Assembly (NCBI RefSeq): GCF_003428625.2
Contig: NZ_QVQT02000006.1
Coordinates: 124,001 to 188,000, forward strand
DNA: 64,000 bases
Direction: 5' to 3'
DNA from: Paracidobacterium acidisoli
GTDB lineage: Bacteria > Acidobacteriota > Terriglobia > Terriglobales > Acidobacteriaceae
Shown here: positions 29,086 through 45,037 of the stretch, one piece after another
How the letters are laid out: every line of letters starts with the position of its first letter
Numbering within the stretch: the first letter of the stretch is position 1
Notes under the pieces: generated by a model
What the model was told of the DNA's origin: nothing
Database searches by the model: none
What the model saw: the letters and a program-made list of their open reading frames with translations, nothing else
Program-made: the position numbers and the translations under genes

Positions 29086-29095
29086 TGTGGATCGT

Positions 29096-30157
29096 ATGCT
29101 GCAGGCCGGCTCAGAGTTAACCGCAATGGACAAGGCGCTTCTTTCTGCCGGGGCACAAGATCCGCGGCGGTGCGGCTTCCGTTTCTCTTTTGGCCTGCCT
29201 GTCCTACTGCTCGCGCTCACGGTGAGCGTGGGACTTCAAACAGCGGCACATGCCGAGAAGGCCGACGGCGCTTCGGCTGCCGCACAGAGCTCGACGGCGA
29301 AGGGCGCTGCGCAGGCTTCGCAGCAGCAGCAGGCAGCCGGATCGGCGCAGACGCTCGAATCGCGGCTGCCGTTCTATCAGACGTGGTACTTCTATCTCGC
29401 GCTGCTCTTCCTCGGCATCACGCTGCCGGTGCAGATCTTTCGCCGCCGCATGCTGCTGATGAAGGGCAGGATCGGCATTGTGGTCGAGGAGCGGAACCGC
29501 ATCTCGCGCGAGTGTCACGACACGCTCATGGCCGGCTTTGCGGCGATCTCATGGCAGCTGGAGGCAACGGCGAAGCTCTTCCGCGACAGCGGGCTCGAGT
29601 CGACGCCGGCGGCTGAGTCGTGCGAGCTGGCGCGCAGCATGGTCTCGCACTGCCAGGCGGAGGCGCGGCGCATTATCTGGGACCTGCGGGAGACCGACGA
29701 GGTGACCAGCGTTCTTTCGCAGGCGCTGACGCGGTCGCTGGCGGCCAATCACGTTCAGGGCAGGACGCAGACGACACTCGAAGTGGAGGGCGAGGAGATT
29801 CCGCTGGCGCCGGGCTGCGTGCATCATCTGGTCTGCATCAGCCAGGAGGCGGTAAACAATGCCATGCGCCACGCCAGCGCCTCGCGCATTCTGGTGCATC
29901 TGAAGTATGCGAGCGATGCGCTCTTTCTCTCGATCCGCGACGACGGCAGCGGATTTCAGCCCTCGTTCCGCGCCTCATCGCGCTACGGACACTTCGGTAT
30001 TGCCGTGATGCAGGAGCGGGTGAGAAAGATCGGCGGCGTCTTCCGTATTCATTCCCTGGCCGACTCGGGAACGGAAGTGGCGGTGGAGGTGCCCTTCAAC
30101 GCGACGGAACAACTCGTGCATCAGGGGCAAAACGTCATACGATGGATCGGAATATGA
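29096..30157 (+). CDS. NarL-type sensor histidine kinase (HisKA_3)
   Basis: A kinase of about 353 residues. Two hydrophobic segments (about 32-50 and 97-115) bracket a short Ala/Gln/Ser-rich stretch of about 45 residues, too small for a normal sensing domain. The dimerisation helix carries the phosphorylated histidine H141 in ECHDTLMAG. The ATPase domain has SQEAVNNAMRHA (N box) and RDDGSGF (G1 box). The start is not certain because ribosome sites are weak. It overlaps the response regulator by 4 bases (ATGA), a translationally coupled pair. Located between permease and catabolic genes, it probably regulates the sugar-acid cluster. Confidence 0.85.
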   Translation: MLQAGSELTAMDKALLSAGAQDPRRCGFRFSFGLPVLLLALTVSVGLQTAAHAEKADGASAAAQSSTAKGAAQASQQQQAAGSAQTLESRLPFYQTWYFYLALLFLGITLPVQIFRRRMLLMKGRIGIVVEERNRISRECHDTLMAGFAAISWQLEATAKLFRDSGLESTPAAESCELARSMVSHCQAEARRIIWDLRETDEVTSVLSQALTRSLAANHVQGRTQTTLEVEGEEIPLAPGCVHHLVCISQEAVNNAMRHASASRILVHLKYASDALFLSIRDDGSGFQPSFRASSRYGHFGIAVMQERVRKIGGVFRIHSLADSGTEVAVEVPFNATEQLVHQGQNVIRWIGI

Positions 30158-30777
30158 AACCAATCCGTGTGCTTCTGATCGAAGATCATTTTCTTGCGCG
30201 CATGGCGCTGCACTCCGTGCTCTCGGCGCATTCGCAGATACAGATTGTGGGCGAGGCCTGCGACGGCGAGGCCGGACTGGCGATGTACCGCTCGCTGCTT
30301 CCGGACGTGGTGGTGCTGGACCTGCGGCTTCCGCTGATCAGCGGCTTCGATCTGATCGTGAAGATCAAAGAAGAGTTTCGCTCGGCTCACATTGTCGTGC
30401 TTTCGAATTACTCCGGCAGCGAGGATATTTATCGCGCGGTGCGAAGGGGCGCAATGGCTTATCTGACGAAAGATGCGAGCGGCGAAGAGCTGATCAACGC
30501 GATCGAGAGCGTGCATCGCGGTCTGCGCTATTTTCCGAACATGGCTCTGGACCGGCTTGCCGAGCGGACACCCGCTCTGGAGCTGACTCCGCGAGAGACC
30601 GAGGTGCTGAGCTGCATTACCCGGGGCTACAGCAATCGCGAGATCGCCGAAGAGCTGGGCATCGCGGAGAAGACGGTCCGAATCCACGTCAGTTCCCTGC
30701 TCGACAAGATGGGCGCGAGAGACCGCACGCAGGCGACGATCTATGCCCTGCAGCGTGGCTTGATCCATCTGGAGTAA
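30154..30777 (+). CDS. LuxR/NarL-family response regulator
   Basis: A 207-residue two-domain regulator. The receiver has the acidic pair in IEDH, phospho-acceptor D56 in VVVLDLRLP, and the switch lysine in YLTKDAS. The C-terminal GerE helix-turn-helix is LTPRETEVLSCITRGYSN onward. It starts inside the kinase stop codon (ATGA); an alternative ATG at 30142 would add four residues. The cognate kinase is upstream and the exported RidA and SelA-like genes are downstream, so these are its likely targets. Confidence 0.9.
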   Translation: MKPIRVLLIEDHFLARMALHSVLSAHSQIQIVGEACDGEAGLAMYRSLLPDVVVLDLRLPLISGFDLIVKIKEEFRSAHIVVLSNYSGSEDIYRAVRRGAMAYLTKDASGEELINAIESVHRGLRYFPNMALDRLAERTPALELTPRETEVLSCITRGYSNREIAEELGIAEKTVRIHVSSLLDKMGARDRTQATIYALQRGLIHLE

Positions 30778-30917: not shown

Positions 30918-31463
30918 ATGGAGACCAGCACCCGACGAAAGTTTTTTGGCAGAGCCGCGGCTGCCGCCGCTCTTGCCGGAGCGCCAAAGCTTTTTGCGCA
31001 GCAGCCCGCTTCTTCCGCCACGCCGGCCTCGGGCGAGAAGCGCATATCCAATCATGTGCATGACGGCATCTTTTACTTCTCCGGAACAGGCGCCAATGAC
31101 GACTTCCCGGACAGCGACCACGTCACGGTAAACGATCCCTTCGAGAAGCACGTGACGCGTACGATGGAGGCGCTGAAAAGAACTCTGGAGGGCCGCGGCT
31201 GCACGATGGACAGCATTCTTCACCTCGAGGTCTTTCTGTGCCTGCCGCTCTCCGATTCGATTCCGATGCCCACGGGGAAGGCGCGCTTCGACGCGCACAA
31301 GGCGCAGTACGATGCGCTGAACAAAATCTATCGGACCTATTTCAGTCCCGGTAAGGCTCCGTCACGCGCCTGCATGGCGCTGGAATGGATACCGGGCGAT
31401 TCACTGATCGAGATTGTGGGGAGCGCCCTGGTGGTGGGGCCGGCCACGTCTCATGAAGACTGA
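30918..31463 (+). CDS. Tat-exported RidA/YjgF-family protein
   Basis: A 181-residue protein. The N-terminus STRRKFFG followed by an alanine-rich hydrophobic run and LFAQ is a Tat-type signal, whereas RidA proteins are normally cytosolic. The RidA fold follows (HDGIFYFSGTG, LEGRGCTMDSILHLEVFL), and PSRACM supplies the arginine that in RidA binds the carboxylate of imine or enamine intermediates. It lies 35 bases upstream of a Tat-exported SelA-like PLP enzyme, whose eliminations would generate such intermediates, so hydrolysing them is the inferred role. Confidence 0.85.
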   Translation: METSTRRKFFGRAAAAAALAGAPKLFAQQPASSATPASGEKRISNHVHDGIFYFSGTGANDDFPDSDHVTVNDPFEKHVTRTMEALKRTLEGRGCTMDSILHLEVFLCLPLSDSIPMPTGKARFDAHKAQYDALNKIYRTYFSPGKAPSRACMALEWIPGDSLIEIVGSALVVGPATSHED

Positions 31464-31498
31464 TTCCACTTCAGCCGTTTATCAGAAGGAGTGAAAAG

Positions 31499-32899
31499 AT
31501 GCCGTTCCCTTCGAGATGGAGCCGCCGTTCCTTTCTTGGCGCACTGAGCACAATCACGGGCGGTCTGCTGGCGCCGGATCACCTGAAGGCCGCGTCGATG
31601 CTGAGCCCGAAACGGAAACGCCCGGTAGATGGCGATCCGATTGTGCCGATCGAGAGCGGCCTGGGATCGACCGGCGACATCTACGCCGAGCTTGGCATTA
31701 CGCCGCTGGTCAACATCAACGGGACGCTGACGGTGATCGGTGGATCGGTGATGCGCCCTGAAGTGATGGAGCTGATTCGCCAGGGGAACCAGCACTGCGT
31801 GTCGATTGACGAGCTGGAGATCGCGGCGGGGAAATTTATCGCGAAGATCTGCAGGTCTCCCACGGGCTATACGGGCCTGGTGACAGGAGGAGCGGCTGCG
31901 GCGCTGACGGTGGGCTACGCCGGGATGATGACCGAGGATCTGAATCCGCGTCTGCGCACCATTCCGGATGTGAGCGGATTTCCGAGGACCGAGGTGATCA
32001 TCCAGAAGAGCCATCGCTATGCCTTCGACCACCAGATTCGCCAGACAGGCGCGACGCTGGTGGAGGTGGAGACGCGCGAGGAGATGATTGCGGCGATCAA
32101 TCCGAAAACAGTGGCGATTCACTTCACGAATATTCTGTCGGACCAGGGACAGGTGAGCGGTCCGGAGACGGTTGCCATTGCGAAGGCGCACAACCTTTAC
32201 ACCTTCAACGATGCTGCCGCGGATGTTCCGCCGAAGGAGCGGCTGTGGGAGTATCCGGGACTGGGCTTCGACCTGGTGGCCTTCAGCGGCGGCAAAGATA
32301 TTCGCGGGCCGCAGGCCTCCGGCGTGCTGATCGGCAGAGAAGAGCTGATTCGCTATGCGCTGCTGAATATGAGTCCGCAGGAAGATCGCGTCGGACGCTG
32401 CTGTAAGGTCGGCAAAGAGACGATCTTCGGCCTGCTGAAGGCGCTGGAGCTTTTCGTGAATCAGGACCTGGACGAAGACACGCGTATGTACGATGCGCGC
32501 GCGCGGGTGATTACCGATGCGGTGACGAAGTTCGGCGTGACGGCGCTTCCGAGGCAGTACAATCCGCAGGCGCTTGGCAACGTGACTCCGTATTACTCAT
32601 GGCGAATTGCTCCGCGGCTTGGATTGACCGGGGCGGATGTGATGCAGAAGCTGGCCGAAACGCGGCCTCTGGCGATTGGAGCACGCAGCGCCGGCGCGAG
32701 CGGTTTGCGCGGCCGCGATCCTGAAGGCGCATCGGAGCCGAAGCCCGCACCGAAGCCTCACACGAAGAAGTACTCCGATGACGATCCGGAAAGCGGCCCG
32801 AACGATTTTGGATTCCCTCTCTGGCAGCTGAAGGAAGGAGAAGACAAGCTGATTGCGGACCGGCTGGCTGAGATCTTCAGCGAGGCGCGGAAGGGATAA
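31499..32899 (+). CDS. Tat-exported PLP-dependent SelA/D-glucosaminate ammonia-lyase-like enzyme, copy 1
   Basis: A 466-residue fold-type I PLP protein. A classical Tat signal (SRRSFLGALSTITGG) opens it, so it probably folds with PLP in the cytoplasm before export. The Schiff-base lysine is K266 in FSGGKDIRGPQ, and D238 in FNDAA should contact the pyridine nitrogen. Relatives are annotated as selenocysteine synthase-like or as ammonia-lyases/dehydratases acting on 2-amino-2-deoxy-gluconate (DgaE type). There is no selA/selB context here, so a role in tRNA-Sec is unlikely. A charged insert rich in Lys/Pro/Asp lies near residues 410-445. It is in an operon with the exported RidA. Confidence 0.8.
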   Translation: MPFPSRWSRRSFLGALSTITGGLLAPDHLKAASMLSPKRKRPVDGDPIVPIESGLGSTGDIYAELGITPLVNINGTLTVIGGSVMRPEVMELIRQGNQHCVSIDELEIAAGKFIAKICRSPTGYTGLVTGGAAAALTVGYAGMMTEDLNPRLRTIPDVSGFPRTEVIIQKSHRYAFDHQIRQTGATLVEVETREEMIAAINPKTVAIHFTNILSDQGQVSGPETVAIAKAHNLYTFNDAAADVPPKERLWEYPGLGFDLVAFSGGKDIRGPQASGVLIGREELIRYALLNMSPQEDRVGRCCKVGKETIFGLLKALELFVNQDLDEDTRMYDARARVITDAVTKFGVTALPRQYNPQALGNVTPYYSWRIAPRLGLTGADVMQKLAETRPLAIGARSAGASGLRGRDPEGASEPKPAPKPHTKKYSDDDPESGPNDFGFPLWQLKEGEDKLIADRLAEIFSEARKG

Positions 32900-32937: not shown

Positions 32938-33756
32938 TTACTGATCGTCGTCGTCATCGCTGTCGGAGTGCGTGCCGGCGGGAGCGGGGCCCATCAGCGA
33001 TGCGGACTTGATCAGATAACTCACCAGATCATTCAGCTCTTTTGGCGTGAGCGTCTTTCCGTAGTCTTGCGGCATCAGCGTCTGCCTGCCGGTGTTCAGC
33101 GTGGCGATGCATTCGCGTGGAATGCTGTGGAAGGCTCCGTCTCTGGTCTGCAGCACAACATGAAAATTGTTTTCCGCACGCAGCAGTCCTTCATATTTCG
33201 TTCCATCGCTGAGAGCAATGCTTGTCAGATGTCCACGGCTCTCGGGGCCGTTGTCGGGGCTGACAATGGCGGTGCGAACGGCATCGACTGCACGGCCGCG
33301 CGCGTAATCGCTCAGGTCATCGCCGAGAAATCCGCCCCTGCCTCGCATCATGTGGCAGCTTGCACAGGAAGCTTTGCCGGCGAAGAGCGCTTCTCCGGCT
33401 GCCGGATCACCAGGAAGCTCAACGTGCGCCGTGTCTCCCACACCCTGCAGGACGCGCAGGTAAGCGACGAGCTGGCCGACCTTTTCGTTTCCGAGATGCG
33501 CGAAGGACGGCATGCCTGCTTCGGCAATTCCGTGGCTCACGATGCCCTTCAACTGCGCATCGGAGGCGGCAACGATATCGTGACGGGTGGCAATATTCGG
33601 GGCATGCTCTCCACCGCGGCCGTCACTGCCGTGACAGGCGGAGCAGTTCTGACTGAAGAGGAGCGCGCCCGCACCGTCTTTAGTGGTCTGCGCGGATAAA
33701 GCGCCCGCCAGGAGCGTAAGAGAGCAGAAAACACCCAGATGTATCCGTGTAAACAA
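32938..33756 (-). CDS. Periplasmic diheme cytochrome c with putative heme-binding (TIGR02603-like) domain
   Basis: A 272-residue exported cytochrome. After a signal peptide come CSACH (38-42) in an N-terminal class I domain and CASCH (131-135) in a second domain. The latter continues with GRGGFLGDDLSDY, a beta-rich KYEGLLRAENNFHVVLQTRDG stretch and LMPQDYGKTLTPKELNDLVSYL, the pattern of TIGR02603 domains found on PQQ dehydrogenases and sugar oxidases. The tail is an odd run of aspartates (DSDDDDDQ). The start appears to be TTG with a weak ribosome site. It follows the PQQ-dehydrogenase operon and probably accepts its electrons. Confidence 0.85.
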   Translation of the reverse strand: MFTRIHLGVFCSLTLLAGALSAQTTKDGAGALLFSQNCSACHGSDGRGGEHAPNIATRHDIVAASDAQLKGIVSHGIAEAGMPSFAHLGNEKVGQLVAYLRVLQGVGDTAHVELPGDPAAGEALFAGKASCASCHMMRGRGGFLGDDLSDYARGRAVDAVRTAIVSPDNGPESRGHLTSIALSDGTKYEGLLRAENNFHVVLQTRDGAFHSIPRECIATLNTGRQTLMPQDYGKTLTPKELNDLVSYLIKSASLMGPAPAGTHSDSDDDDDQ

Positions 33757-33907: not shown

Positions 33908-34672
33908 TTACACCGGACGGGCAAGCGCGCGCAGCGTCTCTTTCTTCAGCAGCGAGGAAGACTGCACATCCAGATAAATCGCGGCATTTGCGTGCGCGCG
34001 CAGAATTGACGCGGGCGCGGCCGGGCTTACCGGATGATCGAAGCACGCCTCGATCGCGGCGGCTTTGCGCGGGCCGGGCACGATGGCGAGAATCTCCTTC
34101 GCCTTCAATACCTGCTGCACGGACATGGAGACGGCGCGCCAGGGGACCATATCAAGCGAGGGAAACCAGCCCTCCTCGACCTGCTGGCGGCGGCACATCT
34201 CGTCCAGCTCCACAACGATGTATGGCTCTTCGGTGGCAAAATCGGCAGGCGGATCGTTGAAGGCGAGATGCCCGTTTTCTCCGATGCCGACAAAGGCTAC
34301 GTCGATGGGCGCGGAGGAGATGGCTTCGCCGGCGCGGCGGATGACCTCGGCCGGGTCCTGCTCGCCATCGAGCAGATGGAAGGCCGTGATGCCTGTCTTC
34401 GCAATGAGGCGGTCCTGCAGGAATCCGCAGAAGCTGGCGGGATGGGTCATCGGCAGCCCGATGTATTCGTCGAGATGGAAGAGCTCCACGCGCGACCAGT
34501 TGATGCCGGGCGTGGCCGTCAGCGCTTCGAGGAATTCGAACTGAGAGGCCGCGCTGGCCGCGATGATGCGCGCCCTGCCGCGCTCTCTGATACTGCGCCG
34601 GATGGCGGCTGCCGCCTGCGCCGCGGCGGCCTTGCCGAGGGACTTTCTGTCTTCATGAACCAGTATGTGCAT
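33908..34672 (-). CDS. nagB: Glucosamine-6-phosphate deaminase (NagB-like)
   Basis: A 254-residue cytoplasmic enzyme without a signal peptide. It would convert glucosamine-6-phosphate to fructose-6-phosphate and ammonia. The catalytic base region [10 protein letters not shown] (D68) and the ring-opening histidine in [14 protein letters not shown] (H135) are present. It is slightly shorter than E. coli NagB and lacks its allosteric region, so it should be non-allosteric. The ATG at 34672 follows AGGT. It is 43 bases downstream of the PQQ dehydrogenase on the same strand. Its presence is the best evidence that the neighbouring pathway handles amino sugars. Confidence 0.88.
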
Positions 34673-34715
34673 ACCGTACCTGCCTGGTCTGTACGCTGTG
34701 TGCTCGTCGATGCTG

Positions 34716-36338
34716 TTATGGCAGAGCAAAGGTGAAGAGATCGTCGCCGGCGGCGATCGCGACATATTGCTTACCGTTGACCGCATAACTCATCGGGGAG
34801 GCATGCTGAGGCTGCCCGGTGTTGAAGTGCCACAGGCTCTTCCCTGTTCTGGCGTCCACGGCTTCGAAGCTGTTGGCGTCGTCGGCGAAGAAGACCAGGC
34901 CTGCGGCGGTCGTCATGACTCCGCCCCACGACTGGGCATTGCCCACCTGTGGATAGATCCATGCGAACGAATGCGTGGAAGCGTCAAAGGCCATAAGCCG
35001 CTTTTTGCCCTTTGCATTCGGATCGCGGCGGCCGCCAGTGGCATAGAACTCCTTGCCCTCTTCAAACTCCTGGGGCTTTGAAGAGTTTACCGAGCACTCA
35101 TCGAGAGCAAGGAAGTAGAAGAGCTGCGTTCCGGGATTGTAGGCGGGCGAATACCAGTTGGAGGCTCCCACTTCTCCAGGGCACACGAGCGTCCCTTCTG
35201 CAGTCGGCTTTACATCGGTGTAGATCGGGCGGCCCTGCGGATCGATTCCCTTCGCCCAGTTCAGTTTTTCGGCGAAGCGCGTTGCCGACAGAAACTTTCC
35301 GTTGGTGCGATCGAGAATATAGAAAAAGCCGTTGCGATTCGCTTCCATCAGCAGCTTTCGCGGCTGACCGTCGTAGATTCTGTCAACGAGAACCGGCGTT
35401 TCGACTCCATCGAAGTCGTAGAGATCGTGCGGCGTGAATTGAAAGTACCACTTTATGGCGCCGGTGTCGGGATCGAGCCCAAGCACGCATGCTGTATAGA
35501 GATCGTCGCCGGGGCGGCCGGTTCCGTCATAGTCGGGCGCTGCGTTGCCGGTGCCCCAGTAGAGCGTGTTCAGCTCCGGATCGAAGGTTCCCGGCATCCA
35601 TGAAGCGCCGCCGCCGTGCAGATAGAGATTGCCCGGCCAGCTCGATGAGCCGAATTCGCCGGGAGCGGGAATGGTCCACCGCCTCCAGACCTCGGCGCCG
35701 GTCTGCGCATCGAAAGCGGCGATGAATCCCCTGACTCCGTCGTCACCGCCGGAGGTTCCGACGATGACTTTGCCCTTCACCATCAGCGGCGCACTGGTCG
35801 CGCCGTAGTTTTTGTTTCCGTCGGTGTATGCGATATCCCAGATCAGATGGCCGGATCGCGCATCGAGGCAGAGCAGATGCGCATTGTCGGTTTCCATGTA
35901 CAGGCGATCGCCCCAGACGGCAACGCCGCGATTGATGTGGCCCGCTGCGTCATCGATGAGGCCGTCGCTTACCGGCCGCGAGTAGTGCCACAGGATCTGC
36001 CCGTCTTCGGCATTGAGCGCGTAGGCGTCATTCGATGCGGTGACGTACATCACTCCGTTGACCACGACCGGAGTGACCTCGAGCGTGCCTGCGTTTCTGC
36101 TGTGGAAGACCCAGACGGCGCGAAGCTGCTTTACATTGTCGGGCGTGATCTGCGTGAGGCCGCTGTACCGCTTTCCGGTGTAGTCGCCGTTGTAGGTCGG
36201 CCACTCGCCTTTTTTGAATGCAGAGGCAATATCCTCGGTTGTTTTGATGGTCGTCGCCGTGTTCTGGCCAGCGGCAGCCGCAGTGAGACCGAGCGCCGCA
36301 CAGCACAGGCAGAGAACGCCTTTTACGAACCGGATCAA
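34716..36338 (-). CDS. Exported PQQ-dependent sugar/alcohol dehydrogenase
   Basis: A 540-residue quinoprotein with a signal peptide ([16 protein letters not shown]) and repeated beta-propeller blades ([39 protein letters not shown]). [20 protein letters not shown] and [12 protein letters not shown] are the PQQ-site and catalytic-aspartate regions of the methanol/ethanol/glucose dehydrogenase family. The adjacent Cys-Cys ring of methanol dehydrogenase is not seen, which fits a sugar or polyol enzyme. No heme domain is fused; the nearby diheme cytochrome can take the electrons. Translation starts at TTG inside the stop of the upstream gene (TTGA overlap). The substrate is not provable from sequence. 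Confidence 0.87.
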
Positions 36339-37786: not shown

Positions 37787-39049
37787 CTAAGCCTTTTTGG
37801 ACTTCGCTTCCGACAATAACTGGCGCAGACGCCTTCCGACGATGATCTCTTCGCCTGGCTTGAGCGTCATGGAAATGATCTGCAGATTGTTGTTCTTAAT
37901 GTTTTTGACCTTGCGACGGTCGGGAGCGCGGCCGAGAACGTCGCTGGGATTGTCGTTGGTGAGGACCGCGATGCTCGGCGTGCCGTCGAGCAGCTCACGG
38001 GCACAGTCCGCGATAGTGTATCCCCAGGCATCCTGATCCCAGCTCACGGTCAGCGTGGGATAGCTGTTGCCTCCTGGCGGCGTGTCGATCGAGGTTGTGA
38101 CTCCCTGCATGGTCTGGATCAGCTTCTGAATGCGCTCCACACGTCCGTTCCATTCCTTATCGAGCGCGGACAGGTCTTTGTGGTACCAGGCTTCGACCGC
38201 AGCGAGGCAGCCCATGATCTCTTCTTTGCCCACCTTCATGGGCCGGCACACCGCGCCCTCCCATGGATTTGAATTGGCCAGCGCGGCTTCGATCAGGTCT
38301 TTGCGCCCGAGCAGAACACCGCTGCTCTGCGGACCGCACAGGCCCTTGCCGCCGCTTACGGTGAAGAGGTCGCACCCCATCTTTGCAAAGAGCTGGAGCT
38401 TGTCGATGGGCGGTACTCCATCGGCCGCGTCCATAAAGATAGGCACGTTCGCGCGTTTGGTCACCGCGATCTCTTTGACCAGCGTGTCGGGATCGGAGGT
38501 GGTGTAGACCATCGCGGTGTTATCGGTGATCGCGTTCGCAAGCTCGTCGACAGACTTTGCGATGACCAGCTTGCCGCCGGCCAGACGGATGGCGCTGTCA
38601 AAGGGGCTTCGTCCGCCCATCATGACCACTTCATGCTTCAGGCCGGTGGTATCGGGCAGCTGCCAGACTCTTTCGGGGTCTGTACCGGCGATGCAGCCGG
38701 CTGTCGCCGAAGCCATCGCTCCGGCAGCGCCCGACGTGATCATGCCGGACTGGGCACCGGTGAGCTCGGCCAGACGCCGGCCGACCGCGTGCTGCAGATC
38801 AAAGATATTCACGAAGTGCTGAGAGGCGGCTTCCTGCGCGGCCTTCACTTCGGGCAGCTCAAGCGTCGCGCTGAGATAGGTCCAGGTGCCACGGCCGTTG
38901 ATCACCGGCTTGATACCGATCCGCGTATAGATATTGTCGGTCGAAACCTTCGCGGTCTGCGCCCAGCCTGTGCCGATCGCCCGCTGAAACTCCACCTGCG
39001 CAAGCAGTGGAAGGGCTGTCGCCCACTTGATAAATGTCCTTCGTTCCAT
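37787..39049 (-). CDS. Tat-exported PLP-dependent SelA/D-glucosaminate ammonia-lyase-like enzyme, copy 2
   Basis: A 420-residue relative of the protein at 31499-32899. The N-terminus ERRTFIKWATALPLLA is a Tat-type signal. The PLP lysine is K235 (VSGGKGLCGPQSSG) and the ring aspartate is D207 (FMDAADG). It lacks the long charged insert of copy 1. ATG at 39049 or GTG at 39052 can serve as the start, both after GGGGAG. The triple-RidA gene is just upstream (21 bases) and the DUF4380/PQQ-dehydrogenase operon downstream. As for copy 1, beta-elimination or dehydration of an amino-sugar acid is the most plausible reaction, with an aldolase-type activity as the alternative. Confidence 0.8.
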   Translation of the reverse strand: MERRTFIKWATALPLLAQVEFQRAIGTGWAQTAKVSTDNIYTRIGIKPVINGRGTWTYLSATLELPEVKAAQEAASQHFVNIFDLQHAVGRRLAELTGAQSGMITSGAAGAMASATAGCIAGTDPERVWQLPDTTGLKHEVVMMGGRSPFDSAIRLAGGKLVIAKSVDELANAITDNTAMVYTTSDPDTLVKEIAVTKRANVPIFMDAADGVPPIDKLQLFAKMGCDLFTVSGGKGLCGPQSSGVLLGRKDLIEAALANSNPWEGAVCRPMKVGKEEIMGCLAAVEAWYHKDLSALDKEWNGRVERIQKLIQTMQGVTTSIDTPPGGNSYPTLTVSWDQDAWGYTIADCARELLDGTPSIAVLTNDNPSDVLGRAPDRRKVKNIKNNNLQIISMTLKPGEEIIVGRRLRQLLSEAKSKKA

Positions 39050-39070
39050 CACGTCGTCTTCTCCCCGTGG

Positions 39071-40300
39071 TTAGTGATTGGCAGTCTTGACTGCGATAAA
39101 GGAAATCTGCTCCGCGGCTTCCACATCGGTGTCCGTGTTCTGCTGCATGGTGGTCCGCGTCGGATAACTTCCTTTGAAAAAGGTTTTGTACAAGTTATTC
39201 ATTTTGTCGAAGTCCTGTATCTGGCGGAGGTAAACCGTGGTGAACACGACGTTCGAGAAATCCATGTCGGCCTCTTCGAGGCCATCGAGCAGGTTGCGCA
39301 TCGATTGCCGCAACTGCAGGTCAAAGTCCTGCGTCACCATGCCCTGGCCGGGAATGAAGCCATCCTTGGCGGAGAGATACAGCGTGTTGCCGTAAAGGAT
39401 GCCGGGGCTTGCCGTAGCGCTGGGAGGCATATTGCGCGGGCGGATCGCTTTGCGCTTGGCGAGGTCTGCACCCGCGATGCAGGTAAAGACGATGTGGCTT
39501 CCGCCGGGAAGGGCGACGATCTGGATGGTTCCGCGCCCTGGCGTGTTGCCGAACTCGAAGTATGTTTTGTAGACGCTGCCCATGACGTCATACTGGCCGC
39601 CGACGCTCATATACGGGTTGACCCACAGAACATTCTTCATGCTCATGTGCGCGGCGCGCAGGATCGCAGCCACGTTGTCCAGAGCCTGGCGGGTTTCGCC
39701 GGAGAATGAATCGGCGAGCTTGCCCGTCACCGGGTCTGCGCCGTTCTGAGCGGAGAGATACAGCACATCATTCGCCTGGATGGCCGGCGGATCTTTGTGC
39801 TCGCCCTTCGGCCAGCCCTGCGGCCAGATGGCTTTGCGATGGGCCTTGTCTTTGACGGCGATGCAGTTGATCTCGACCGTATCGCTGCCGACGAGCGAGC
39901 CGACGACCATGACTGACCGCGCCGGAGGGTTGGCACCGATCTCATTCCAGTAGACGTCATTCATTGCGTCGATGTTGTCCGCGCTTGATACGTAGACATT
40001 CATCCAGACGACGTTGCTGAAATCCATGCCGGCGGCCTGAAGAACGCCGCGCACGTTATCGAGAGACTGTTTGACCTGGGCGGGGAAATCGGATGGGCGA
40101 ACATCCTGCGCGTTCGCACTGCCCTGCCCGGCGACATAGAGCGTTCCATCGACAAGAATTCCGGGGCTGTAGGGGAAGTTTCCCGTAACACCCGCCGGCC
40201 GGATGATCTGACGGGAGGTATCCTGCGCCGCCGCCGTGCCTGCTGCACCCACGACCGCCGCCAACAGCAGGCAGGCCATACAACTCACCAGCTTTTTCAT
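39071..40300 (-). CDS. Exported triple RidA/YjgF fusion protein
   Basis: A 409-residue exported protein made of three consecutive RidA-like domains at about 30-152, 155-282 and 283-406. Each has the strand ILVDGTLYVAGQ-like opening, the helix QSLDNVRGVL-like segment and the N(V/I)Y-type core. Each keeps an arginine at the RidA active-site position (R128 in PPARSV, R256 in TPGRGT, R382 in YPTRTT), while the usual glutamate is replaced. The signal peptide MKKLVSCMACLLLAAVVGAA directs it to the periplasm. RidA is normally a homotrimer of single-domain subunits, so this chain could fold as a covalent trimer. It lies between the SMP-30 and SelA-like genes. Confidence 0.85.
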   Translation of the reverse strand: MKKLVSCMACLLLAAVVGAAGTAAAQDTSRQIIRPAGVTGNFPYSPGILVDGTLYVAGQGSANAQDVRPSDFPAQVKQSLDNVRGVLQAAGMDFSNVVWMNVYVSSADNIDAMNDVYWNEIGANPPARSVMVVGSLVGSDTVEINCIAVKDKAHRKAIWPQGWPKGEHKDPPAIQANDVLYLSAQNGADPVTGKLADSFSGETRQALDNVAAILRAAHMSMKNVLWVNPYMSVGGQYDVMGSVYKTYFEFGNTPGRGTIQIVALPGGSHIVFTCIAGADLAKRKAIRPRNMPPSATASPGILYGNTLYLSAKDGFIPGQGMVTQDFDLQLRQSMRNLLDGLEEADMDFSNVVFTTVYLRQIQDFDKMNNLYKTFFKGSYPTRTTMQQNTDTDVEAAEQISFIAVKTANH

Positions 40301-40359: not shown

Positions 40360-41340
40360 TCATAAGTACGGGATGAAGCCGCGCGCGTGCGTTGGAATTT
40401 TGTAGACCGAAGTTCCCGCCGTGATGTAGAGCGTCGAATCACTCGCGTCGCCCCAGGTAAGATTCGCCGGCTGCTCGGGAACGACGATCGTGCCGAGGTG
40501 CCTGCCGGAGGGACTCCATACCCAGATGCCGCGTGGTCCCACGACATAGAGATTTCCCTCTTTGTCGACGCGCATTCCATCGGGATCGCCGGACTTCGGA
40601 GGGCCCGCTTCAGAGCCAAAGACGCGGCCGTTGCTCAGCGAGCCGTCGGGATGAACGTCGTACACATGAATGTTTCGATCCTCGTCGTCGTCGATGTACA
40701 GCTTCTTTCCGTCGGGAGAGAAGGCGAGTCCGTTTGGTTGAGGAAGCTCTTTGGTGAGCAGCCTGACCTGTCCGTCCTTCGAGATGCGATAGATGCCCTG
40801 GAAGGGGATCTCCTGCTTCTGGCCCGGAGGCAGATCGGAGGTGGGATCGGTGAAGTAGATTGCTCCGTCAGGGCCAAGCACTACGTCGTTCGGCGAATTG
40901 AAGCGCTTGCCCTGATAACGGTCGGCAATGACCGTGTACTGGTGGCCGTCCGGCGACAGACGAATGATCGCGCGCAGAACACTGGCGCAGTCGAGAATCC
41001 TCAGATTTTTGTCGTAGGTATTTCCGTCCGGATCGCCGAGCGCAATGATCTCCTGCTTTTCGCCGGTCCGCACATTGACCTTAAAGATTTTGTTCAGCGT
41101 CTCATCGCTGACATACAAGTATCCTGCTTTGTCCCAGACGGGACCCTCTGTAAATCCAAAACCGGATGCGACTTTGGTGAGCTGCGCATCGTGGCCAATA
41201 AGTTTCCAGAAGCCCGGAGACAGGGCCTGCAGCTCGAACTTTTGCTGCGCCTGCTGCGCGCCTGCACTGCTCCACGCCATCGCGCCCAGAAGAACAGACG
41301 CCGCGGCAACGATCAGTCTTTTAATTTGTGGCACCGTCAT
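40360..41340 (-). CDS. Exported SMP-30/gluconolactonase-like protein
   Basis: A 326-residue beta-propeller enzyme with a signal peptide (LIVAAASVLLGAMAWSSAGAQ). The metal-binding glutamate lies in GFTEGPVWD, the asparagine in NSPNDVVLGPDG, and further propeller ligands in PNGLAFSPDGKKLYI, as in regucalcin/gluconolactonase. These enzymes hydrolyse sugar delta-lactones to aldonic acids, the product expected from PQQ-dehydrogenase action. AGGAGGT is 11 bases before the ATG. It is the first enzyme gene after the TonB receptor on this strand and is probably co-transcribed with the RidA and SelA-like genes. Confidence 0.87.
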   Translation of the reverse strand: MTVPQIKRLIVAAASVLLGAMAWSSAGAQQAQQKFELQALSPGFWKLIGHDAQLTKVASGFGFTEGPVWDKAGYLYVSDETLNKIFKVNVRTGEKQEIIALGDPDGNTYDKNLRILDCASVLRAIIRLSPDGHQYTVIADRYQGKRFNSPNDVVLGPDGAIYFTDPTSDLPPGQKQEIPFQGIYRISKDGQVRLLTKELPQPNGLAFSPDGKKLYIDDDEDRNIHVYDVHPDGSLSNGRVFGSEAGPPKSGDPDGMRVDKEGNLYVVGPRGIWVWSPSGRHLGTIVVPEQPANLTWGDASDSTLYITAGTSVYKIPTHARGFIPYL

Positions 41341-41431
41341 TTCGACGAGTGACCTCCTCTTTCTGCTGTGGCGCACGCCTGACTGGAGATGACAGCCAGA
41401 GGTGCGCCGGACACATCCGTACCTGTTTCGC

Positions 41432-44400
41432 TTAGAAGACGTACTTCAGAGCGACCTGCATGATGCGGGGATCTCTGGTTGAGAGCGTATAGCCAAAACC
41501 ATTTGCTCCTGTGTTGTCGACCTGGCCATTGGGGTTATTAAACTGCGCGTGGTTGAAGACGTTGAAGGCTTCGGCACGGAAATTCAGGCTCTGATTTTCC
41601 ATGATCTTCGTCTCTTTCTCGAGAGCCATATCGGAGTTCAGAATTCCAGGGCCGGAGAAGTACCGCCGCATCGCGTTACCTACCTGACCGAGTGGTTCGG
41701 GCACAAAGTAATTCGGGTTGAAATATGGCTGCTGGCTGCGCGGGTTGCGATTCACGAACAGTTTGCTGCCGTTATTGGCATAGCTGGGCTCGTCGATCGT
41801 GTCATTGAAGGTTCCGGTAAGCGAGTTGTCATCGGACTCAGCCAACTGCACCGGCTGGCCGCTGGCGAAGGTCGACACACCGGAGATGGACCACCCTCCG
41901 GCGACCCGAGTGGAGAGAGCTCCTTTGCCGGTGAGGTTGTTGAATGGCAGCTGCACGGTGTAGCTGGCCACCAGGTCCTGCGGCACGTTGAAGACCGACA
42001 GGGCACGGCTGAGCGCGGGATTGTAGGGATTGGTTGCATCGAACGCCGTCGAACCATTGTCGATGGATTTCTCCAGCGTATAACCGATGAGGAAATTTGC
42101 GTATTTCTCATTGTGCTCGACGCTGATCTGCAGAGAGTTGAAGCTGGAGCTGACGGCCGTCTTCATATACGGATTGCTGCCGAAGTTGATGCCGAAGGTC
42201 GGGCGCGTTCCGTTTACTGTCGTCCCGTTCGCCAGCGTGAAGACACTGTCTTCCTGGTTGGGGCCGCATGTCAGCGTATTGGGGGCGACGGCCGCTGCAT
42301 TCAGCTGCAGGCAGAGAGCGGGGTTCGCTGGGTTCGACTCTTCAAAGGTAAGCAGGTGACGGCCGACGTTGCCCACATAGCTTACGGACAGGACAGTCGC
42401 GCTTCCAAGCTGCCGCTGCAGCGAGAGATTGAACTCCTGCACGTAGGGAATCACGTTATGGGAATAGAAGTAGTCCGCACCGGAGATCGGCGTAGCCTGC
42501 ACCCAGTTGAAGGTCGTATCGGGATTTTTGGGAGAGACATTGGTCGCCGGGAAGGTGAAGGGGAATTTGATTCCCTCGTTGTTGCCGGTTGCGCGATCGA
42601 TAAAGGGCGAGTCGAGCAGCGGAGGAACCGGAGAGGAGTAGTACAGGCCGTAAGGCGCGTCGCCCACTTCCACGAATCCGGTCGCGTTCTGAATGGCGCT
42701 GTAGAAGATGCCGTATCCGGCGCGAATGCTGCTCTTGCCGCTGGTACCGAAGATTTTGCTCAGGAACCCGCTGGCCAGGTCAGGCGAATACGCAAATCCA
42801 ATGCGCGGAGCGAAGTTGGTGTATTTGATCGGAGAAAGCGTGCGCGGAATGCCGGGATCGCCGGGCACGACCAGCCCGGTGGGAGCTCCGGGAAATGCTT
42901 TCGACTGCTCGCCGGCCACGACCGTCTCCAGCTTGTTCTGCGTGTCATACCAGGGTGTCATGACCTCGTAGCGCAGTCCATAATTGACGGTAAGCTGGCG
43001 CGAAGCCCGCCAGGAGTCCTGCACGTAGCCGCCATAATAGCCGGCGCGCGAGTCGAGAAGCTGCTGGCTTGCCTGCGTGAAATTGTTCGTCGCGCCGATC
43101 AGATAGTCGGCGAAGTCGAGGCCCGTTTCAGAGCCGTTGAATCCGAAGGCTCCGTTAGGGTCGTCGAAATTCCGCTCGTTGATCTGGTCATAATGCACGT
43201 CGATGCCGAACTGGATCGTGTGGGTTCCCGCCACCTTGATGACATTGTCGATCAGCTGCACCGTATTGTTGTACTGCCGCAGCGTGTCCTGCGCGAGCCC
43301 GAACTGGTAATTGTTGAAGAAGAACGAGGGCACACCGGCAAGCTGCGATGTGATGTTGCTGATGCCGCCGGTTGGGTTCCAGGGAGTGTTGAAGCCTAAT
43401 GAGCTTAGAGATACTCCCGTGCCCTGCACCGGCACACCGGTAAAGTTGACGTCCCGGAGATAGACCAGCCGGATATCGTTCACAAGATTCGGACCGATGG
43501 TTGTGGTGAGGCCGAAGTTGTACATCTGCGTCTGGCCGGTGTTCTGATCGTCAAACCCGGGAATATTGATTCCCTGATCGTACGGATTGATCGTCTTGAA
43601 TTTGTCGATGAAGTAATAGCCGAAGAGCGCGCCGTAGGGTGTGGTCGCATCCATGCGAAATCCACCCTTGTCATCCTTCAGGCGTCCGTTGAATGCGGAC
43701 GTTTCATAAAGAGGGCCGTTCGGCGAGGATGTGTTCGACACAGGAATGTATTTCAGAGTATTTACGGCGACGGACGACCATGCGCTCTGAGGAATCTGAG
43801 CGTTTGGAAAGACGCACTGCGAAGAAGTCGTGCATCCCGTCGTGTAATAAGGCTCGCCTGCGGTGACGGTGTATCCCAGTTTCTGGCTGAGCACGCCGGC
43901 CCAGTAGGAACCGACGACGCCCTGTCCTCCGTTCGCCGGGTCTGAGGCGGATAAAGCTCCTATGTCCGTGGGGTTGTTCAGATTGCCGTTACGCTCGTCA
44001 AACGATGGTACGGGAAAGTTCTGCGTGGCACCGATGATCTGGCGCGTGCCCTGGTAGTCTGCAAAAAAGAAGAGCTTATTTTTCAGAACTGGCCCGCCAA
44101 AGGTGCCGCCGAACTGGTTCTGAATGTATACGCCACGCGCGGAAAAGTAATTCGCCGCGTCGAGGTCGGTGTTGCGCAGAAAGTCGAATGCCTCTCCGTG
44201 GAACTGGTTGGTGCCGGACTTTGTGACGACGTTGATCTGACCGCCGCTGAAGTTTCCGTACTCGGCGTTGAAGTTGTTGGTGATGATGCGGAACTGCGCG
44301 ATGGAATCGGCGTTCGGGATCATCGCTGCGCCGTTATGGACACCCTCTTCCGCGTCTGCGCCGTTCACCATGAAGCCGTTCGCTTCGACGCGGCCACCGT

Positions 44401-44980
44401 TGACCGACTGCGTGCCGTTTGTCTGATCGCCGGAGAGCGTCGATGCGCCGACGCCGGAGGAGGTGTCGTTGCCCTGATAAGGCGACACACCGGGCTGCAG
44501 GGCGAGGAGATCGATAAATGACCGGCCATTGAGCGGCATGGCCGTGATCTTGGGGCCGTCGATGACCTGACCCATCTGGGTGCTCTCGGTCTCGACGTGC
44601 ACCGCATTGTCTTTGACCGATACGGTGTTCGTCACCTGTCCGAGCTTGAGAGTGATGTCGACGCGGACGGCGGAGTTCGCGTTGATGATGACGTCCTGCA
44701 GCTCGAATTTGTCATATCCCGACTGGGTCAGCGAAATCGTATAGTGGTCGACCGAAAGCGTGGGAAACGCATAGAAGCCGCGGCCATCGGTGACGGTGGT
44801 GTGCTGTACGTTCGTGGACGCGGCCGTGGCCACGACGGTCGCTCCCGGAATGACCGCGCCGCTCGGGTCAGTCACGATTCCGGAGATGGTTCCGGTAATG
44901 TCGGCTCTGGCGATGCCTGTGCCGAAAACGACGAGCGTACATAAGGTCAGAGCGGTGAGGCCTCTCAAAAATAACTTCAT
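41432..44980 (-). CDS. TonB-dependent receptor, Oar-like, second copy in window
   Basis: A 1182-residue outer-membrane transporter. The start at 44980 has GGGGGA 9 bases upstream and places a signal peptide (TALTLCTLVVFGTGIARA) first. An N-terminal carboxypeptidase-like domain (ITGTISGIVTDPSGAVIPGA, about 28-110) is followed by a plug-like segment (LNGRSFIDLLALQPGV) and a large barrel ending in phenylalanine (ALKYVF). Sequence similarity to the receptor at 16221-20129 is limited outside the domain plan. It heads the minus-strand catabolic cluster and presumably imports its substrate across the outer membrane. Confidence 0.9.
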   Translation of the reverse strand: MKLFLRGLTALTLCTLVVFGTGIARADITGTISGIVTDPSGAVIPGATVVATAASTNVQHTTVTDGRGFYAFPTLSVDHYTISLTQSGYDKFELQDVIINANSAVRVDITLKLGQVTNTVSVKDNAVHVETESTQMGQVIDGPKITAMPLNGRSFIDLLALQPGVSPYQGNDTSSGVGASTLSGDQTNGTQSVNGGRVEANGFMVNGADAEEGVHNGAAMIPNADSIAQFRIITNNFNAEYGNFSGGQINVVTKSGTNQFHGEAFDFLRNTDLDAANYFSARGVYIQNQFGGTFGGPVLKNKLFFFADYQGTRQIIGATQNFPVPSFDERNGNLNNPTDIGALSASDPANGGQGVVGSYWAGVLSQKLGYTVTAGEPYYTTGCTTSSQCVFPNAQIPQSAWSSVAVNTLKYIPVSNTSSPNGPLYETSAFNGRLKDDKGGFRMDATTPYGALFGYYFIDKFKTINPYDQGINIPGFDDQNTGQTQMYNFGLTTTIGPNLVNDIRLVYLRDVNFTGVPVQGTGVSLSSLGFNTPWNPTGGISNITSQLAGVPSFFFNNYQFGLAQDTLRQYNNTVQLIDNVIKVAGTHTIQFGIDVHYDQINERNFDDPNGAFGFNGSETGLDFADYLIGATNNFTQASQQLLDSRAGYYGGYVQDSWRASRQLTVNYGLRYEVMTPWYDTQNKLETVVAGEQSKAFPGAPTGLVVPGDPGIPRTLSPIKYTNFAPRIGFAYSPDLASGFLSKIFGTSGKSSIRAGYGIFYSAIQNATGFVEVGDAPYGLYYSSPVPPLLDSPFIDRATGNNEGIKFPFTFPATNVSPKNPDTTFNWVQATPISGADYFYSHNVIPYVQEFNLSLQRQLGSATVLSVSYVGNVGRHLLTFEESNPANPALCLQLNAAAVAPNTLTCGPNQEDSVFTLANGTTVNGTRPTFGINFGSNPYMKTAVSSSFNSLQISVEHNEKYANFLIGYTLEKSIDNGSTAFDATNPYNPALSRALSVFNVPQDLVASYTVQLPFNNLTGKGALSTRVAGGWSISGVSTFASGQPVQLAESDDNSLTGTFNDTIDEPSYANNGSKLFVNRNPRSQQPYFNPNYFVPEPLGQVGNAMRRYFSGPGILNSDMALEKETKIMENQSLNFRAEAFNVFNHAQFNNPNGQVDNTGANGFGYTLSTRDPRIMQVALKYVF

Positions 44981-45037
44981 GGAATCATTCCCCCTGGTAT
45001 TCACGGCTTCAGGATGTTCGTATGCCATAAAGCCTGC

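What the first reader, a model, noticed from the sequence alone, without database searches (positions are those of the whole stretch)
39071..40300. Triple RidA fusion that may fold as a covalent trimer
The chain contains three consecutive RidA/YjgF domains, each keeping an arginine at the active-site position (R128, R256, R382) while the usual glutamate differs. RidA acts as a homotrimer with active sites at subunit interfaces, so three fused domains could form one pseudo-trimer with three non-identical sites. It is also exported, which is unusual for RidA.
Basis: partly seen in the sequence, partly recalled or inferred. Interest (0 to 1): 0.68.

Follow-up and report, generated by a model that had tools for sequence, protein, structure and literature searches.

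The report
Exported triple RidA beside exported lyase
A soil-type acidobacterium appears to export an enzyme made of three joined RidA units, encoded next to an exported vitamin-B6-type lyase that may make the reactive compound RidA clears; the triple form itself was already known, but this exported pairing with lopsided active sites looks new.

Summary
The observation mostly holds: window 39071-40300 (-) encodes 409 aa with a signal-peptide-like leader and three RidA domains (PF01042 x3). R128, R256 and R382 are right, but domain 1 keeps the usual glutamate (E143); only domains 2 and 3 lost it. The covalent-trimer idea is in print: Niehaus 2015 named '3x-RidA' and called them presumably covalently linked trimer units. 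An AlphaFold2 model (pLDDT 83, pTM 0.85) has single-chain chorismatases as its best full-length match (Z 25).

What looks new is the setting. Of 83 acidobacterial 3x-RidAs examined, 37 have a SelA/DgaE-like PLP gene within 6 kb; 36 of these fall in one part of the tree. By a loose residue criterion none of the 37 keeps three sites, against 34 of 46 others. In the window protein only the D1 acid half plus D3 arginine half looks canonical; its more distant relatives do not follow that rule. The best reading is an extracytoplasmic lyase-plus-imine-hydrolase pair, perhaps for oxidised amino sugars. Export, activity and substrate are inferred.

The parts
39071..40300 (-). 3x-RidA with signal-like leader, 409 aa: leader about 1-26, D1 about 30-150, D2 about 155-278, D3 about 283-405
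   Evidence: leader by eye
37787..39052 (-). SelA/DgaE-like PLP enzyme with Tat-type leader (MMERRTFIKW..., by eye); 18 bases lie between the 3x-RidA stop codon and its listed start
   Evidence: PF00266 over cut-off, PF03841 below cut-off; TIGR01437 below cut-off; DGL 7lc0 E 2.9e-29
40360..41376 (-). SMP-30/gluconolactonase-like protein, signal-like leader by eye
   Evidence: PF08450 150.6 bits
36335..37741 (-). DUF4380-like protein (weak mutarotase-type hit), signal-like leader by eye; fold not established
   Evidence: PF14315 below cut-off, NF052227 E 0.0039, model failed
34716..36338 (-). quinoprotein-like beta propeller, signal-like leader by eye; Ala-Ala where the best PDB match has its Cys pair, and Asp for a Glu recalled as the Ca ligand
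   Evidence: TIGR03075 497.9 bits over cut-off, TIGR04528 'acido-empty' 540.1 below cut-off 650; alignment to 1kv9
33908..34786 (-). NagB-like protein (glucosamine-6-phosphate deaminase family); models match from residue 39, so probably an internal start and no leader
   Evidence: PF01182 over cut-off; NagB models below cut-off
32938..33756 (-). c-type cytochrome, signal-like leader by eye
   Evidence: PF13442, TIGR02603 over cut-off
41432..45028 (-). outer-membrane beta-barrel protein with carboxypeptidase-like regulatory domain (TonB-receptor type)
   Evidence: PF25183, PF13620
30918..31463 (+). single RidA domain protein with Tat-type leader (by eye)
   Evidence: PF01042 45.3 bits; ORF
31499..32899 (+). 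second SelA/DgaE-like PLP enzyme with Tat-type leader (by eye), 35 bases after the single RidA
   Evidence: PF03841 25.1 bits, TIGR01437 132 bits below cut-off

Best explanation
The gene encodes an exported 3x-RidA that folds as one covalently closed RidA-type pseudo-trimer. It works outside the cytoplasm as the imine/enamine hydrolase partner of the Tat-exported SelA/DgaE-like PLP enzyme encoded directly downstream. The PLP enzyme would eliminate from a 2-amino-3-hydroxy acid and release an enamine/imine, which the 3x-RidA hydrolyses to a 2-keto acid and ammonia. Shown here: three domains, arginines, gene linkage, loss of site halves in the linked group, a confident model. Read by eye: the leaders. 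Inferred: export, the activity, the partnership, and that in this protein only the interface of the D1 acid half (Y44, G58, E143) with the D3 arginine half (N368, R382) is a canonical site. More speculative: the neighbours (quinoprotein-like, cytochrome c, SMP-30-like lactonase, DUF4380) make this an extracytoplasmic oxidation route for an amino sugar or its acid, such as D-glucosaminate to 2-keto-3-deoxygluconate.
For: Domains and family. Model: pLDDT 83.2, pTM 0.85; single domains match RidA and the whole chain matches chorismatases. Half-site logic: Arg105 and Glu120 come from different subunits (passages of PMC1884159, and of PMC4960622). Linkage: among the fetched phylum loci, 46 of 85 SelA-like ORFs have a RidA-domain ORF within 300 bp, in 10 of 19 genera; the window's own genome has 5 RidA proteins in 5.0 Mb, and both of its two SelA-like genes sit beside one. 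Among 83 3x-RidAs, 37 have SelA within 6 kb (32 within 300 bp, same strand); linked v unlinked (37 v 46): DUF4380 22 v 0, quinoprotein 20 v 1, SMP-30 13 v 0, cytochrome c 12 v 0. 36 of the 37 lie, with 5 unlinked, on one side of an SH-aLRT 93 branch; the label needs 4 changes against 27 in shuffles. D3 acid half lost and SelA near: 36; neither: 40; one only: 7. Precedent: RidA protein OngD is essential, role unknown, in a cytoplasmic pathway that deaminates glucosaminate (passages of PMC9537276). Both window SelA-like enzymes lack DGL's His162/163; a DGL H163A mutant releases the enamine (passages of PMC9529869).
Against: His162/163 is missing from almost all SelA-like enzymes here, with or without RidA beside them (2 of 90 ORFs have His at 162, 0 of 90 at 163), so this test did not separate the groups. 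The one-site rule fails in the 17 own-order proteins of 39-43% identity: D1 Glu120 is Gln in 10 of 17, D3 Asn88 is Asp in 13 of 17, and the D2 arginine half is intact in 17 of 17 although the D3 acid half is lost in all; L234 and L235 (59 and 55% identical) deviate too. 15 of 37 linked proteins have no site passing the loose criterion. Pairing n/n-1 fell from r 0.58 (36 rows) to 0.46 (83 rows) while 'same domain' rose from 0.09 to 0.29, and no tree-corrected test reaches significance. The quinoprotein may be cofactor-free; no pqqE passes the cut-off in this genome, nor in any of the 14 controls. 39 of 85 SelA-like ORFs have no RidA within 300 bp. My automatic leader test called only 11 of 78 SelA-like ORFs 'Tat'.
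Confidence: 0.5

Rival explanations
1. Ordinary 3x-RidA: an exported general scavenger of imines, whose place beside the PLP gene only reflects an inherited gene cluster; no dedicated partnership.
For: 3x-RidA is a known architecture; 46 of 83 acidobacterial 3x-RidAs have no SelA seen within 6 kb, although signal-like leaders occur in the unlinked ones printed too (25 of 25's unlinked list); 3x-RidAs occur in Vibrio and Photobacterium records where I recognised no SelA-like neighbour (neighbours not scanned with profiles).
Against: Adjacency of RidA and SelA-like genes recurs in 10 of 19 genera, with one-hit, two-hit and triple RidA ORFs, and loss of site halves goes with the SelA link, though largely within one part of the tree.
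Confidence: 0.21
2. The fused trimer has been repurposed, as in chorismatases or AtzD: it binds and converts a different ligand, and loss of two of three canonical sites marks a new activity rather than imine hydrolysis.
For: The best full-length structural match is chorismatase; the acid half is lost in D2 and D3 of the window clade, and 15 of 37 linked proteins keep no site by the loose criterion; AtzD is a documented repurposed YjgF concatenation (passages of PMC3758960).
Against: A search with one chain favours single-chain targets; identity to chorismatases is only 11-12%; no chorismatase or AtzD model was among the hits (whether the libraries hold such models was not checked); the catalytic arginine is kept in 102 of 111 domains of the linked group.
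Confidence: 0.2
3. A non-enzymatic role: a carrier or chaperone-like binding protein for a small carboxylate outside the cell.
For: Two of three sites look decayed; RidA proteins have been given chaperone roles (start of the abstract of PMC4284807 in the listing; paper not opened).
Against: One complete set of the five compared residues is kept in the window protein, and a lyase is encoded next door.
Confidence: 0.09

Closest known systems
3x-RidA proteins (Niehaus et al. 2015, PMC4433059; e.g. EF_0115 of Enterococcus faecalis)
   Same: three RidA domains in tandem; proposed there as covalently linked trimer units (section 5 read)
   Different: the main text has no occurrence of 'signal peptide', 'periplasm', 'Acidobacteria' or 'DgaE'; here a form with a leader, SelA-linked, with unequal domains. 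EF_0115 itself was not compared
RidA/TdcF homotrimers
   Same: domain fold and, in D1, all five residues compared (Y17, G31, N88, R105, E120)
   Different: three fused, diverged domains; leader; only one canonical interface predicted
Chorismatases (4bps, 5ag3, 5a3k)
   Same: single chain that overlays the whole model, Z 25
   Different: 11-12% identity; three sequence-detectable RidA domains here; RidA arginine kept. That chorismatase is a YjgF-like pseudo-trimer, and the names FkbO/Hyg5, are recalled; no paper on them was read
AtzD cyanuric acid hydrolase, Toblerone fold (PMC3758960, passages)
   Same: three concatenated YjgF-like units
   Different: AtzD has its site in the central barrel and binds a metal; here RidA-type interface residues are kept, and no AtzD model was among the hits
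[quoted passage not shown]
   Same: PLP lysine position kept; carboxylate Arg226 position kept in both window enzymes
   Different: Tat-type leader; His162/163 and the phosphate-site Arg301 not kept; scores below the family cut-offs
ong cluster of marine chitin oxidation (OngB/OngC/OngD, PMC9537276, passages)
   Same: PLP deamination of an amino sugar acid together with an essential RidA protein
   Different: cytoplasmic, single-domain RidA; OngC is a fold-type III PLP enzyme; RidA role unknown there

Membership tests
3x-RidA | three RidA domains in one chain | tested here: met
   PF01042 x3, TIGR00004 x3
3x-RidA | folds as one covalent RidA-type trimer | tested here: inconclusive
   confident model and full-length match to chorismatases; no coordinates to overlay on a RidA trimer; pairing statistics suggestive only
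RidA subfamily (imine hydrolases) | catalytic arginine (R105) | tested here: met
   R128, R256, R382
RidA subfamily (imine hydrolases) | Tyr17, Gly31, Glu120 in each domain | tested here: not met
   met in D1 only; D2 and D3 lost all three
RidA subfamily (imine hydrolases) | imine/enamine deaminase activity | not testable with these tools
   needs protein
Chorismatase | chorismatase sequence family | tested here: inconclusive
   no such model among Pfam or NCBIfam hits at E <= 0.01; I did not check that the libraries hold one
Chorismatase | overall single-chain fold | tested here: met
   Z 25.3, 284 residues, 3.0 A; a shared fold shows no function
AtzD/barbiturase (Toblerone) | AtzD sequence family | tested here: inconclusive
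   no such model among Pfam or NCBIfam hits; I did not check that the libraries hold one
AtzD/barbiturase (Toblerone) | Toblerone fold with central site and metal | tested here: inconclusive
   not in the listed rows, which does not exclude it
DgaE ammonia-lyase (neighbour gene 37787-39052) | NCBIfam score over cut-off | tested here: not met
   TIGR01437 153.1 v 385.3, NF047797 137.6 v 600
DgaE ammonia-lyase (neighbour gene 37787-39052) | His163 proton donor | tested here: not met
   aligned residues Pro/Asp at 162/163; the loop differs in length, so the exact column is uncertain, but no His stands in it
DgaE ammonia-lyase (neighbour gene 37787-39052) | PLP lysine | tested here: met
   Lys at the SGAK position in every aligned row

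The most novel reading that the evidence does not exclude
Acidobacteria run an extracytoplasmic PLP-dependent ammonia-lyase pathway for oxidised amino sugars (or similar hydroxy amino acids): deacylase or oxidase, lactonase, Tat-exported SelA/DgaE-like lyase that lacks its own proton donor, and an exported RidA that finishes the reaction. In one branch the RidA became a covalent trimer whose symmetry was broken so that one interface does the catalysis while the others decayed or took a new role.
Probability: 0.26. Interest if true: 0.78.

Novelty: new variant of a known kind. Interest (0 to 1): 0.52.

Why it matters
RidA is usually discussed as a cytoplasmic safeguard for PLP enzymes (general knowledge). 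A conserved exported pair of PLP lyase and RidA would mean that the same enamine problem is handled outside the cytoplasm, and would make RidA a pathway enzyme with a defined partner and a testable substrate. It could also help explain why a RidA is essential in amino sugar acid use (OngD, role unknown in PMC9537276). Natural 3x-RidAs with one intact and two decayed interfaces also let one ask whether a RidA trimer needs all three sites.

Tried and rejected
His163 test: I expected loss of the DGL proton donor to track RidA adjacency. It did not discriminate, because nearly all SelA-like enzymes here lack it.

One-site rule for all SelA-linked 3x-RidAs: rejected. It fits the window and L038, L039, L040, L227, L231, L232, L233 (L229 has Thr for the D3 Asn), but not L234 and L235 of the same clade, nor the clade of 17.

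Significance of site-half pairing: on the tree of 83, summed over the three interfaces, the partner half goes the same way in 4.9 and the other way in 0.6 independent pairs for n-1; 1.9 and 1.0 for the same domain; 0 and 1.0 for n+1 (my sums). No test there or reaches 0.05; kept as suggestive only.

DUF4380 as a mutarotase: the structure prediction failed (pLDDT 39.6); no fold claim, and no fold search was made with it.

PQQ supply: pqqE has no hit over cut-off, but none of the 14 controls had one either, so this says little.

An ORF 'family' seen beside amidohydrolases (L147:2509-4095) gave no Pfam hit, matched reverse-strand ORFs over amidohydrolase genes and was dropped as a shadow ORF. L142:5457-7229 is a stop-to-stop artefact around a Tat-RidA. 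L187, L182, L180 and L189 were dropped as duplicates of L264, L259, L257 and L265; L228 and L230 were left out beforehand as re-fetches of L038 and L040, judged by equal contig lengths.

Not all hits were examined. Searches list 70 and 34 match rows; the 83 3x-RidAs are those with fetched loci. Nine of them (L188, L190-L197) had only 1.5 kb flanks, and several lie near contig ends (such as L256, a 3.5 kb contig), so SelA links and neighbours may be missed, mostly among the unlinked. Of the SelA rows, those weaker than about 1e-44 were not fetched; thus covers 19 of the 24 genera tallied.

Literature: listings (79, 97 and 101 capped at 10 of 113, 8 of 58 and 12 of 36) showed no paper on exported RidA or on a RidA-SelA pair by title or abstract start; most were not opened. 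'3x-RidA' occurs in one held paper. The library lacks most subscription papers.

Full report
WHAT IS THERE. The ORF at 39071-40300 on the - strand (409 aa) carries a leader that reads as a Sec signal peptide and three RidA domains: PF01042 in three stretches (183.2 bits) and TIGR00004 in three (201 bits). PDB sequence search lists 47 distinct sequences at E <= 0.01, all with RidA/YjgF/L-PSP-type names or a 2-aminomuconate deaminase. Its statement on the glutamate is not: domain 1 keeps Y44, G58 and E143, at the positions of Tyr17, Gly31 and Glu120; domain 2 has Asp/Ala/Val and domain 3 Ala/Ala/Gln there. The Asn88 position is Asn in D1 (N114) and D3 (N368) and Gly in D2 (G241).

IS IT A COVALENT TRIMER? 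A model from the window protein and four relatives (one partial) has pLDDT 83.2 and pTM 0.85. In the 50 Foldseek rows shown, 49 are single-domain RidA-family chains (target TM-scores about 0.80-0.92) and one is the longer chorismatase 4bps. VIA-align ranks chorismatases 4bps, 5ag3 and 5a3k first, Z 25, 284-289 residues from model position 50 or 51 to 404, 3.0-3.3 A, 11-12% identity; RidA chains follow at Z about 20 with one domain each. That chorismatases are single-chain YjgF-like pseudo-trimers is recalled; no paper on them was read. Coordinates could not be inspected, so contacts between domains were not measured.

A SEQUENCE TEST OF THE RING. In TdcF, Asn88 orients Arg105, and Glu120 bonds across the subunit interface to residue 107 (passages of PMC1884159); in Arabidopsis RidA the glutamate near the ligand comes from the neighbouring subunit (passages of PMC4960622). 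I scored each domain for an 'acid half' (Tyr/Phe17, Gly31, Glu120) and an 'arginine half' (Asn88, Arg105). Grouping Tyr17 and Gly31 with Glu120 is my inference. In 36 3x-RidAs (108 domains), 21 acid halves were lost (at most 1 of 3 kept). The arginine half was damaged in domain n-1 for 15 of 21, in the same domain for 5 of 21, and in n+1 for 4 of 21; for the 87 kept acid halves the figures are 4, 14 and 15. In 83 non-duplicate proteins the correlations are 0.46 (n-1), 0.29 (same) and 0.15 (n+1); the wrap-round pair D1/D3 is the strongest at 0.70. The contrast weakened with more data, and no tree-corrected test reaches significance. I count it as suggestive of a closed ring in the order acid n / arginine n-1. 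On that reading the window protein has one canonical interface, D1 acid half with D3 arginine half, and two decayed ones.

HOW COMMON. At E <= 1e-20, 33 of 396 sampled Acidobacteriota genomes have a match (the window's own included) and 29 of 298 in the window's own order; 64 of 193 in another class at E <= 1e-25. Not every match is a triple. Signal-like leaders were read by eye in 36 of 36 printed 3x-RidAs, 25 of them outside the SelA-associated branch. Outside the phylum, 21 of 72,556 plasmid records match, 10 of them over at least 80% of the query, all Vibrio; two opened stretches (Vibrio sp. and Photobacterium sp.) hold 421-422 aa proteins without a leader, one confirmed as three-domain by profile. 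I recognised no SelA-like gene beside them, but those neighbours were not scanned with profiles.

THE PARTNER. The next gene (37787-39052) is a PLP enzyme related to SelA and DgaE; [quoted passage not shown] It begins with a Tat-type RR motif. A second pair lies at 30918-31463 (single Tat-type RidA) and 31499-32899 (Tat-type SelA-like) in the same window. These are the genome's only two SelA-like matches at E <= 1e-10. Across the fetched phylum loci, 46 of 85 SelA-like ORFs have a RidA ORF within 300 bp, in 10 of 19 genera; 3 of the 46 have one on the opposite strand, and 7 have a triple RidA (one case, the window's second pair, was entered by hand because L077 starts after its RidA). Many of the 46 are from one genus, g4. 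With 5 RidA proteins in 5.0 Mb, chance adjacency would be a fraction of a percent (my estimate). My automatic leader classifier called only 11 of 78 SelA-like ORFs 'Tat', often because it cut the leader short; RR motifs were read by eye from that output and are visible in most but not all rows.

THE LINKED GROUP. In a tree of 36 3x-RidAs, the 10 SelA-linked ones plus L049 lie on one side of a 100/100 branch. In a quick tree of 83, 36 of the 37 linked ones lie with 5 unlinked on one side of a branch with SH-aLRT 93; L194 lies outside on a long branch; the label needs 4 changes, against 27 on average in shuffles. Loss of the D3 acid half and SelA linkage go together in 36, are both absent in 40, and disagree in 7; L194 has SelA beside it and shows joint loss of the D2 acid half and D1 arginine half. 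By 'acid half at least 2 of 3 and arginine half complete', 34 of 46 unlinked proteins have three sites and 0 of 37 linked ones do; of the 37, 6 have two, 16 one and 15 none. This is largely one clade, not 83 independent facts. The 17 own-order proteins of 39-43% identity (one clade) have changed D1/D3 residues as well, so the single-site picture is confined to the window's close relatives.

THE NEIGHBOURHOOD. Linked (37) versus unlinked (46) loci: DUF4380 22 v 0; quinoprotein 20 v 1; SMP-30 13 v 0; cytochrome c 12 v 0; amidohydrolase 6 v 1; RraA-like 6 v 0 (BLAST E <= 1e-15; nine loci had only 1.5 kb flanks). In the window's own order, 26 of 28 3x-RidAs have SelA within 6 kb. In the SelA-centred loci, 17 of 26 with RidA have a homologue of the cluster amidohydrolase, against 6 of 34 without RidA; it was found in 0 of 29 loci that lack SelA (26 of these are triples). 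The three such proteins scanned pass the PRK09237 amidohydrolase/deacetylase cut-off and carry signal-like leaders by eye. These parts suit an extracytoplasmic route in which a sugar-derived compound is deacylated or oxidised, its lactone opened, and the resulting 2-amino-3-hydroxy acid deaminated. [quoted passage not shown] The window enzymes lack DGL's His162/163 and phosphate-site Arg301, which fits an unphosphorylated substrate and enamine release. (By my numbering the PLP lysine of the 7lc0 fragment is 213; the paper's passages say Lys-217.) Against this: the His loss is near universal in these enzymes, the quinoprotein has Ala-Ala for the Cys pair and Asp for a Glu, and no substrate is shown.

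NOVELTY. The architecture and the covalent-trimer reading are in print (section 5 of PMC4433059 read in full). In the listings I saw no paper on exported RidA or on a RidA-SelA pair; three of those listings were capped and the library lacks most subscription journals. I therefore rate this a new variant of a known kind: an exported, lyase-linked, asymmetric 3x-RidA.

Noticed in passing
window 30918-32899 (+): A second RidA plus SelA-like pair with Tat-type leaders, with a single RidA domain, on the other strand about 7.6 kb from the triple one; SelA-like enzymes with a similar loop beside two-hit RidA ORFs occur in L147, L149 and L164-L167.
   Followed up: partly
L136, L138, L140, L141, L143, L145, L146, L147, L149, L150, L152, L153: SelA-RidA-SelA triplets with an RraA-like homologue in all 12 loci and an amidohydrolase homologue in 9 of 12, in genera g4 and g9 of the window's family.
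   Followed up: partly
window 34716-36338 (-): Quinoprotein-like protein with Ala-Ala in place of the vicinal cysteine pair and Asp in place of a Glu of 1kv9; over the cut-off of TIGR03075, below that of the 'acido-empty' group.
   Followed up: partly
L003 (own genome, G000:C13:203576-206893): A RidA ORF between an amidohydrolase (PRK09061 model, below cut-off) and a membrane-transporter-like ORF (by eye), reminiscent of the ong chitin-oxidation cluster.
   Followed up: no
L174:4854-6119 and L175:4854-6122: Leaderless 3x-RidA proteins, with three domains that look alike by eye, on Vibrio and Photobacterium records of about 2 Mb; perhaps a separate origin of the triple form.
   Followed up: partly
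window 27634-30777 (+): MFS transporter related to the D-galactonate transporter model (below cut-off), followed by ORFs that read by eye as a histidine kinase and a response regulator.
   Followed up: no
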